From assembly GCF_021246465.1 (NCBI RefSeq), contig NZ_JAHRHK010000001.1, positions 306,363 through 370,362 of the forward strand: a stretch of 64,000 nt of DNA, given 5' to 3'. A program made the translations under genes and the position numbers. Under the pieces are notes generated by a model that worked only from the letters and a program-made list of their open reading frames with translations, was not told the origin of the DNA and did not search any database. Positions 44,822 through 45,854 of this stretch are shown here, one piece after another (within the stretch, counting starts at the first letter, position 1; each line of letters opens with the position of its first letter). The stretch is from Nocardioides sp. R-C-SC26. GTDB taxonomy: Bacteria > Actinomycetota > Actinomycetes > Propionibacteriales > Nocardioidaceae.

Positions 44822-45170
44822 CGTAGCCTTCGGTGTTGACCGATCAGTGGGTTGACGTCCGCGCCGCCTCGGCAGTGCTGCTGATGCCCACCGATCTCAC
44901 AAGCGGAGAAGGTTCGTCCTCTCCCACCCGCATCGATCGCCAGCTCCATCACAGATCGTCGGGTCCGGTCCATGAGGCTCTGGCCTCGTGCCTGTACGGG
45001 CGCGCCGACGGCGTGCACGCGGAGGTACGTGGTGGGTGGGCTGCATCGGCTTCCGCTTGTGACCAGCGGGAGCCGTTCGTCATTTGCGGCCCGGACGCCG
45101 GCCGCGCCGGTGTTCGAGGACGACGACGGGCAGACTCCGCCGCCCTTACCCCTGAATCACTGGAGGACAC
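44822..45170 (+). promoter_or_regulatory. long infC leader with two hairpins
   Basis: This 349-nt stretch lacks a convincing gene. TAGCCT (44824-44829) is a -10 candidate, and TTGACC/TTGACG hexamers (44836, 44852) are possible -35s without matching -10s. Two stable stems are seen: CGGCTTCCGCT/AGCGGGAGCCG (45047-45057, 45065-45075; one T-G pair) and CGGACGCCGG/CCGGTGTTCG (45092-45101, 45107-45116). The ribosome site GGAGG (45162-45166) is next to infC. This looks like a structured 5' UTR that may control infC-rpmI-rplT. Confidence 0.5.
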
Positions 45171-45854
45171 ATCAGCACCGAGCTGCGCATCAACGAGCGG
45201 ATCCGGGTTCCCGAGGTCCGACTCGTCGGTCCCAACGGAGAGACGGTCGGCATCGTGTCGACCGACCAGGCGCTCAAGCTGGCGCAGGAGGCCGACCTCG
45301 ACCTCCTCGTGGTGGCCCCCCCGGCGCGCCCGCCCGTCTGCAAGCTCATGGACTACGGGAAGTTCAAGTACGAGAACGCCCAGAAGGCCCGTGAGGCGCG
45401 TCGCAATCAGACGAACGTGATCATCAAGGAGATGAAGCTTCGTCCCAAGATCGACGCGCACGACTACGAGACCAAGAAGGGTCACGTGGTCCGGTTCCTG
45501 CGCGCGGGCGACAAGGTGAAGATCACCATCATGTTCCGCGGTCGCGAACAGCACCGTCCCGAGTTGGGATTCCGGCTCCTGCAGCGCCTCGCCGAGGACG
45601 TCACCGAGCTCGGCTTCGTCGAGTCCTCGCCGAAGCAGGACGGCCGCAACATGGTGATGGTCCTCGGGCCGCACAAGAAGAAGGCCGAGGCCAAGGCCGA
45701 CCATCTCGTCGAGAAGGCCGAGAAGGAAGCCGCGCGTGCGGCGCAGGCCGCCGACGAGCAGGCCGAGCGCGAGGCCGCGCACGCCGCTGGTCCGGTGGCT
45801 GCCAAGAAGGAGCGCCGTCGTTCGGAGAACCTCGACCCCGAGATCGAGGCCTGA
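45171..45854 (+). CDS. infC: translation initiation factor IF-3, AUC start codon
   Basis: Prevents premature subunit joining and checks the initiator tRNA and start codon. The conserved N-terminus INERIRVPEVRLVGPNGE is encoded upstream of the first ATG/GTG/TTG in frame (GTG 45255). An in-frame TGA stands at 45153-45155, and between them the only good candidate is ATC at 45171, placed 4 nt after GGAGG. The product would be MSTELRINERIRVPEV…, 227 residues. E. coli infC uses AUU for autoregulation, so a non-canonical start is expected biology. The rest shows MDYGKFKYENAQKAREARRNQ and KVKITIMFRGREQHRPELG. A charged Ala/Glu/Lys tail of about 50 residues is present. rpmI and rplT follow. Confidence 0.93.
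   Translation: MSTELRINERIRVPEVRLVGPNGETVGIVSTDQALKLAQEADLDLLVVAPPARPPVCKLMDYGKFKYENAQKAREARRNQTNVIIKEMKLRPKIDAHDYETKKGHVVRFLRAGDKVKITIMFRGREQHRPELGFRLLQRLAEDVTELGFVESSPKQDGRNMVMVLGPHKKKAEAKADHLVEKAEKEAARAAQAADEQAEREAAHAAGPVAAKKERRRSENLDPEIEA

What the first reader, a model, noticed from the sequence alone, without database searches (positions are those of the whole stretch)
45153..45257. infC appears to start with AUC
Seen: an in-frame TGA at 45153, GGAGG at 45162-45166, ATC at 45171 and then the conserved IF-3 N-terminus INERIRVPEV; the first ATG/GTG/TTG in frame (GTG 45255) would delete about 28 conserved residues. Known: E. coli infC uses AUU so that IF-3 discriminates against its own start. 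Inference: the same autoregulatory logic with AUC. Automatic annotation would probably truncate this gene.
Basis: partly seen in the sequence, partly recalled or inferred. Interest (0 to 1): 0.7.

Follow-up and report, generated by a model that had tools for sequence, protein, structure and literature searches.

The report
RNA switch before AUC-started IF3 gene
The gene for translation factor IF3 in this Nocardioides-like bacterium likely starts at AUC instead of AUG, which is a known trick, but it is also preceded by a conserved RNA with a predicted fold that matches no family in the Rfam catalogue and likely works as an on/off switch for the IF3 and ribosomal-protein operon.

Summary
In detail: TGA 45153, GGAGG 45162-45166, ATC 45171, IF-3 N-terminus, GTG 45255 twenty-eight codons in. 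AUC is the predicted start: in related loci the SD-placed codon is ATC in 286 of 290 read, ATT in 3, ATA in 1, never ATG/GTG/TTG; rpmI in the same loci is ATG in 144 of 144 found. This is not new: infC with ATC is stated for Streptomyces (PMC5472188, passages).

What looks new lies upstream. The mRNA is predicted to begin with a covarying four-way junction (44838-44970), followed by a terminator-like hairpin (45047-45075), the SD and AUC. A model built without the window finds it once in the window (E 9e-8), in 284 of 297 infC loci of the class, and in 0 of 109 sampled genomes of other classes. 21 of 25 pairs show changes on both sides. Rfam has no match. ACAAGCGGA can pair with the terminator's 5' arm, so an attenuator is inferred, likely answering to L20 as in Bacillus. 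A SigR-type promoter motif overlaps the predicted start site. Ligand, termination and AUC use are untested.

The parts
44812..44837 (+). GGAAT-N18-GTT, SigR/SigH-type promoter motif (consensus recalled)
   Evidence: Only exact match in the 64-kb window, 0.22 expected; GGAA[TC] and GTT both in place in 40 of 54 same-genus leaders
44824..44829 (+). TAGCCT, TANNNT-type -10 element 8 bases before P1
   Evidence: TANNNT ends 3-12 bases before P1 in 234 of 280 leaders, 5.9% in shuffles
44838..44970 (+). Predicted four-way-junction leader RNA (P1 44838-44841/44967-44970; P2 44842-44896; P3 44905-44908/44921-44924; P4 44926-44930/44960-44964 plus inner stem)
   Evidence: Model R1, 47.2 bits, E 9.1e-8, window not in the training set; covariation; positions
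44898..44907 (+). Candidate antiterminator strand CACAAGCGGA, within the conserved ACAAGYGGAG
   Evidence: Perfect 10-base complement of 45052-45061, duplex -19.0 kcal/mol with flanks
45047..45075 (+). Terminator-like hairpin, tail 45076-45086 TTCGTCATTTG (weak)
   Evidence: Such a hairpin in 186 of 280 leaders, 66 of 840 shuffles; not called by the consensus scanner
45153..45155 (+). In-frame stop TGA upstream of infC
45162..45166 (+). Shine-Dalgarno GGAGG, 4 bases before ATC
45171..45173 (+). ATC, predicted start codon of infC
45171..45854 (+). infC (IF-3, 227 aa plus stop)
   Evidence: TIGR00168 and Pfam IF3_N, IF3_C
45953..46147 (+). rpmI (bL35), second gene of the operon, ATG start; named from its sequence by eye
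   Evidence: ORF list
46198..46590 (+). rplT (bL20), third gene, ATG start, proposed source of the ligand; named from its sequence by eye
   Evidence: ORF list

Best explanation
infC is predicted to start at AUC 45171, and its mRNA is predicted to begin with a covarying four-way-junction RNA that, with the hairpin at 45047-45075, would form a transcription attenuator likely answering to ribosomal protein L20, while IF3 likely represses initiation at AUC. Shown here: the conserved covarying sequence set, its place and strand, the hairpin, the complementarity, the AUC codon. Estimates: AUC start 0.95; real conserved RNA structure 0.97; transcription attenuator 0.7; L20 as ligand 0.5.
For: AUC: 286 of 290 loci ATC, 3 ATT, 1 ATA, against ATG in 144 of 144 rpmI found and ATG or GTG in 152 of 152 rplT found; full IF3_N only from ATC; ATC stated for Streptomyces infC. 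Leader: model R1 finds the window once and 284 of 297 loci, 260 of 273 without the training rows; same strand and 71-246 bases before the start codon in 280 of 280 that could be checked; 92.3% of cells paired, covariation score 0.389 against 0.152 shuffled and at most 0.103 slid; RNAalifold gives the same helices on its own, 19 of 23 pairs compensated. In the phylum sample each of the 10 genomes with a hit has one, just before infC. Attenuator: hairpin with T-rich tail in 186 of 280 against 66 of 840 shuffles; P3 pairs better with its own terminator arm than with permuted arms (198 of 20000 permutations as good with 18 representatives, 0 of 20000 with 22); in the window terminator and antiterminator folds differ by 0.4 kcal/mol. 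Ligand: the B. subtilis infC leader is an L20-controlled attenuator (PMC10931766, passages). In M. tuberculosis a 326-nt infC 5' UTR is 2.6 to 4.9 times as abundant as the gene (PMC3207917, passages).
Against: No expression, structure-probing or binding data. The window leader alone is not unusually stable (z -1.07), and its lowest-energy fold does not contain P3 and P4: junction plus terminator is 2.0 kcal/mol worse. The window terminator tail is weak and the consensus scanner reports none; 94 of 280 leaders lack a hairpin by my criterion. A first pairing test with 8 clusters was not significant (p 0.10). No match to L20_leader RF00558 in this genome, and local alignment of 24 leaders to part of this genome's 23S rRNA scores no better than shuffles overall. 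13 of 297 infC loci lack a model hit. A2 was fitted to the model and 8 of its 98 rows were training rows.
Confidence: 0.5

Rival explanations
1. The junction is an attenuator, but its ligand is not L20: it may be IF3 itself, L35, a 30S-derived signal or a small molecule.
For: No RF00558 match and no primary-sequence 23S likeness. PMC3207917 notes homology of the infA and infC 5' UTRs in M. tuberculosis (passages), which would point to a signal shared by initiation factors.
Against: In this genome the model finds only the infC copy well; the three weaker hits lie inside coding sequence. L20 control of this operon is known in two phyla.
Confidence: 0.3
2. The leader is a structured 5' end that protects or processes the mRNA and does not switch; regulation is by the AUC codon and promoters only.
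For: Structure at the predicted 5' end; weak terminator tail in the window; leader not unusually stable.
Against: Hairpins with T-rich tails are enriched (186 of 280 against 66 of 840 shuffles) and P3 matches its own terminator arm.
Confidence: 0.2
3. Ribosome-mediated attenuation by a leader peptide.
For: Some leaders hold SD-preceded short ORFs, the window two.
Against: 65 of 280 leaders have one, against 22.9% in shuffles: no enrichment; the conservation is of pairing.
Confidence: 0.03
4. infC starts at a canonical codon: GTG 45255 here, upstream codons elsewhere, as in many database entries.
For: 113 of the 120 best database proteins are extended; a plain ORF list gives GTG 45255.
Against: TGA at 45153 here; 92 of 290 relatives have no canonical codon between the last stop and the conserved residues; GTG 45255 removes 22 profile positions of IF3_N.
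Confidence: 0.02

Closest known systems
E. coli infC (AUU) and Streptomyces infC (ATC) with IF3 control of the start codon
   Same: IF-3 gene with a near-cognate AUN start and an SD; ATC is stated for Streptomyces (PMC5472188, passages).
   Different: AUC instead of the E. coli AUU; IF3 control not tested here.
B. subtilis infC leader, L20_leader RF00558
   Same: Leader before infC-rpmI-rplT with a terminator-like hairpin; proposed L20 attenuation (PMC10931766, passages).
   Different: No RF00558 match in this genome at E <= 10 and no Rfam match on the leader; a four-way junction at the predicted 5' end of the mRNA.
Other L20 leaders (Gammaproteobacteria, Deltaproteobacteria motif of PMC7247131)
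   Same: Those are said to share two consecutive G-C pairs and an AA dimer (passages); here GG pairs and an AA next to them are strongly conserved.
   Different: No actinobacterial L20 leader in Table 1 of that paper; whether the AA and GG positions correspond was not tested.
Long infC 5' UTR of M. tuberculosis (PMC3207917)
   Same: Long, abundant infC leader (326 nt); L20 analogy raised by its authors (passages).
   Different: The passages seen give an infA/infC alignment, no covarying structure, no class-wide family.
SigR promoter of infC in Streptomyces (PMC5472188)
   Same: infC is a direct SigR target there (passages); this genome has a SigR-family sigma gene (356.8 bits, over the cut-off) and GGAAT-N18-GTT before infC and before that sigma gene.
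   Different: Here the motif overlaps the -10 of the leader's own promoter and ends one base before P1.

Membership tests
infC with a near-cognate start (E. coli type) | IF-3 orthologue | tested here: met
   TIGR00168 219.8 bits, cut-off 60
infC with a near-cognate start (E. coli type) | SD-placed AUH codon at the conserved N-terminus, not AUG/GUG/UUG | tested here: met
infC with a near-cognate start (E. coli type) | IF3-dependent repression, lost with AUG | not testable with these tools
   needs reporters and IF3 levels
L20_leader RF00558 | covariance-model match | tested here: not met
   0 matches in the own genome at E <= 10; no Rfam family on the leader at E <= 1
L20-responsive leader in the broad sense | place before infC-rpmI-rplT with a terminator-like hairpin | tested here: met
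L20-responsive leader in the broad sense | likeness to the L20 site of 23S rRNA (two G-C pairs and AA dimer) | tested here: inconclusive
   AA and GG conserved, but no primary-sequence likeness above shuffles; no three-dimensional comparison
L20-responsive leader in the broad sense | L20 binds and raises termination | not testable with these tools
   needs purified L20
SigR/SigH-type promoter | GGAAT-N18-GTT (recalled consensus) and a SigR-family sigma factor in the genome | tested here: met
SigR/SigH-type promoter | SigR-dependent transcript from this site | not testable with these tools
   needs 5'-end mapping with and without SigR

The most novel reading that the evidence does not exclude
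This is a new, class-wide RNA regulator family of Actinomycetes: a four-way-junction attenuator at the very 5' end of the infC-rpmI-rplT mRNA, coupled to an AUC start, so that L20 sets operon transcription and IF3 sets its own translation. In the Nocardioides-like genus a stress bypass is built in: the overlapping SigR promoter would start RNA a few bases further on, after the P1 5' strand, so that oxidative-stress transcripts could not close the junction and would escape the L20 brake.
Probability: 0.17. Interest if true: 0.78.

Novelty: new variant of a known kind. Interest (0 to 1): 0.6.

Why it matters
The AUC start by itself adds a well-sampled case to a known rule and shows how often the IF3 N-terminus is misannotated. 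The leader could be the so far uncatalogued regulator of a core translation operon in Actinomycetes, the class of Streptomyces and the mycobacteria: it is in 284 of 297 sampled loci yet matches no Rfam family. If it binds L20 it is a further solution to the same control problem in a different fold, and it would explain why infC leader reads exceed gene reads in M. tuberculosis (PMC3207917). The overlap of a stress-type promoter with the 5' end of an RNA switch makes the contest between start-site choice and RNA feedback directly testable.

Tried and rejected
Sequencing error or GTG start: rejected. Rfam on 43500-48000 and on L298: no match. L20_leader in the own genome: none. Primary-sequence 23S likeness, 24 leaders against a 3,052-base locus that holds part of the 23S gene: none consistently above shuffles. 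Leader-peptide attenuation: no enrichment. Second copies of the junction in the genome: three weaker hits (24.2, 18.6, 18.0 bits) lie inside coding sequence and were taken as chance. A GTC start of sigR as in Streptomyces: the sigma gene here has an in-frame ATG, so no such claim. The pairing test with clusters gave p 0.10, because nearly all loci fell into one cluster; the permutation test followed; both are reported. For the model, 36 leaders were picked from 143 and 24 of them used; 12 were dropped by hand for uncertain ends or length.

Print: ten searches of the held library. In the listings and passages seen, none describes a covarying infC leader in Actinobacteria. Not seen: supplements, figures, most subscription papers; the L20 attenuation paper PMC1865079 is not held. 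PMC8269248 mentions 96 novel premature transcripts in Streptomyces clavuligerus (passages); I did not see their list, which may include this leader. PMC8079986 (passages), PMC6429828 and PMC2965389 (passages): nothing on an infC leader in what was shown. PMC13236596: no occurrence of the terms asked.

Full report
OBSERVATION. The frame from ATC 45171 is IF-3 over its conserved length (TIGR00168, 219.8 bits; the 11 solved-structure matches are IF-3 chains). Starting at GTG 45255 cuts the IF3_N domain. The window lies in a 3.7-Mb genome; the nearest named infC genes found are of Nocardioides (81-85% identity, a capped list that may leave out the window's own record).

START CODON ACROSS RELATIVES. 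Some genomes occur in both sets; 286 of 290 start regions and 274 of 280 junctions are distinct sequences. These are parts of what the searches found: for example 120 further places were fetched by hand from the match tables, most but not all of those without a locus. A script found the conserved N-terminus in 290. The SD-placed codon is ATC in 286, ATT in 3 (L117, L135, L199) and ATA in 1 (L145, which the script left open and reads as ATA); never ATG, GTG or TTG. Of the 7 loci missed, 4 show ATC by eye and 3 gave nothing. 92 of 290 have no canonical codon between the last in-frame stop and the conserved residues. In the 176 loci long enough, rpmI was found in 144, all ATG, and rplT in 152, ATG 78 and GTG 74. 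So the non-canonical codon is kept specifically at infC. This was in print for Streptomyces (PMC5472188, passages), which also says that the infC start is misannotated in most Streptomyces species. Of the 120 best database homologues 113 are extended, 5 begin at the ATC position, 2 lack the full N-terminus.

A STRUCTURED LEADER. The 5' regions of 23 same-genus loci align in blocks separated by variable stretches, and RNAalifold places helices on them. The same blocks recur in Streptomyces and Aeromicrobium records and in unnamed loci that I read as Kribbella, Streptosporangiales and Mycobacterium types (those names are my reading of their IF-3 sequences). From 24 diverse loci, the window not among them, I built a covariance model of 88 positions and 25 pairs. 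It hits the 64-kb window once, 44838-44970, 47.2 bits, E 9e-8. In the whole genome the next hit has 24.2 bits and lies within a gene. Over the collected loci it hits 99 of 100, 98 of 100 and 87 of 97 at E <= 0.1: 284 of 297, or 260 of 273 without the training rows. The 13 without a hit are listed under Noticed in passing. In a phylum-wide sample of 119 genomes it hits 10, which are the 10 of this class, and none of the 109 of other classes; each hit genome has one hit, just before infC (coordinates compared; searches of over 40 genomes use stricter filters that lose some weak matches). E-values of the model are rough by the tool's own statement.

COVARIATION. On the 98 sequences (8 of them training rows), 92.3% of cells pair, 21 of 25 pairs have changes on both sides, and the covariation score is 0.389 against 0.152 in shuffles (0 of 500 as high) and at most 0.103 with slid partners. 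The alignment was fitted to the model; but RNAalifold, predicting on its own, gives the same helices with 19 of 23 pairs compensated. Layout: P1 (GACC/GGUC), P2 (variable hairpin), an unpaired ACAAGY, P3 (GGAG/CUCC), one unpaired C, P4 (ACCCG/CGGGU plus inner stem). An AAGNGR...CCAYC core is in 280 of 280 leaders checked. Rfam release 15 has no match at E <= 1 on the window stretch or on L298.

PROMOTERS. A TANNNT element ends 3-12 bases before P1 in 234 of 280 leaders, most often 8 (130), against 5.9% in shuffles; by the usual spacing (recalled) the transcript would begin at P1. In the window this is TAGCCT 44824-44829. The sigma-70 scanner found nothing there. In the same genus GGAA[TC] and GTT are both in place in 40 of 54 leaders; slot chance for the first part 0.5%; the two parts are associated (Fisher p 1e-5, relatedness not corrected); outside the genus both are in place in 7 of 226. 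The exact motif occurs 23 times in the genome, once before the SigR-family sigma gene. SigR transcripts would start further downstream, without P1's 5' strand (inference from recalled spacing).

TERMINATOR AND ALTERNATIVE PAIRING. Between junction and SD a hairpin with a T-rich tail is found in 186 of 280 leaders and in 66 of 840 shuffles. In the window it is 45047-45075 with a weak tail; the consensus scanner does not call it. The window's CACAAGCGGA is complementary over 10 bases to 45052-45061 in the terminator's 5' arm (duplex -19.0 kcal/mol), and the terminator and antiterminator folds differ by 0.4 kcal/mol; junction plus terminator is 2.0 above the minimum. Each junction pairs better with its own terminator arm than with permuted ones (198 of 20000 permutations as good with 18 representatives, 0 of 20000 with 22), and better than with pieces of the same leader (-13.4 against -9.2, n 17; -16.7 against -9.7, n 20); a first test with 8 clusters was not significant. 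I take this as support, not proof, for an antiterminator/terminator switch.

LIGAND. B. subtilis regulates the same operon by L20 and a terminator in the infC leader (PMC10931766, passages), and other phyla have differently built L20 leaders (PMC7247131, passages; its Table 1 lists none for Actinobacteria). In this genome the element occurs once, at the operon that encodes L20, which suits an operon product. Against: no RF00558 match, no primary-sequence 23S likeness. L20 is the favoured but unproven ligand. Leader peptides are not supported.

PRIOR HINTS. PMC3207917 reports a 326-nt infC 5' UTR in M. tuberculosis with UTR-to-gene read ratios of 2.6 and 4.9, notes homology with the infA 5' UTR, and raises the L20 analogy (passages). 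That fits attenuation and is the nearest earlier description that I found.

VERDICT. The finding itself is correct and, as to mechanism, already known in kind. The leader in front of it is a conserved structured RNA without an Rfam match, a likely attenuator, and the more interesting object.

Noticed in passing
L330, L333, L336, L337, L339, L342, L346, L348 (other classes of the phylum): In 20 loci of other classes read by eye (the best-scoring 20 of 107 other-class genomes with an infC match), the apparent infC start is ATC in 11, GTC in 6, GTA in 2 and unclear in 1 (L343); none is ATG, GTG or TTG. In the GTC/GTA group an in-frame TGA lies three codons upstream.
   Followed up: partly
G000:C41:2302-2327 (L362); sigma gene at G000:C41:2508-3062 (L311): The SigR-family sigma gene of this genome has its own upstream GGAAT-N18-GTT, as an autoregulated SigR would; its reading frame has an in-frame ATG, so no GTC start need be assumed.
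   Followed up: partly
L078, L157, L187, L202, L206, L207, L209, L212, L213, L216, L232, L266, L285: The 13 infC loci without a model hit at E <= 0.1. Some, such as L157 and L216, still match the AAGYGG...CYCAYC pattern, so the element may be diverged or reduced there.
   Followed up: no
window 44129-44818: Gene before the leader encodes an SseB-domain protein (PF07179, 95.4 bits); it ends just after the GGAAT motif begins, so the promoter overlaps the end of that gene.
   Followed up: no
P0001-P0120: 113 of the 120 best database IF-3 proteins carry N-terminal extensions of 6-64 residues, median 25, before the conserved start: a systematic annotation error.
   Followed up: partly
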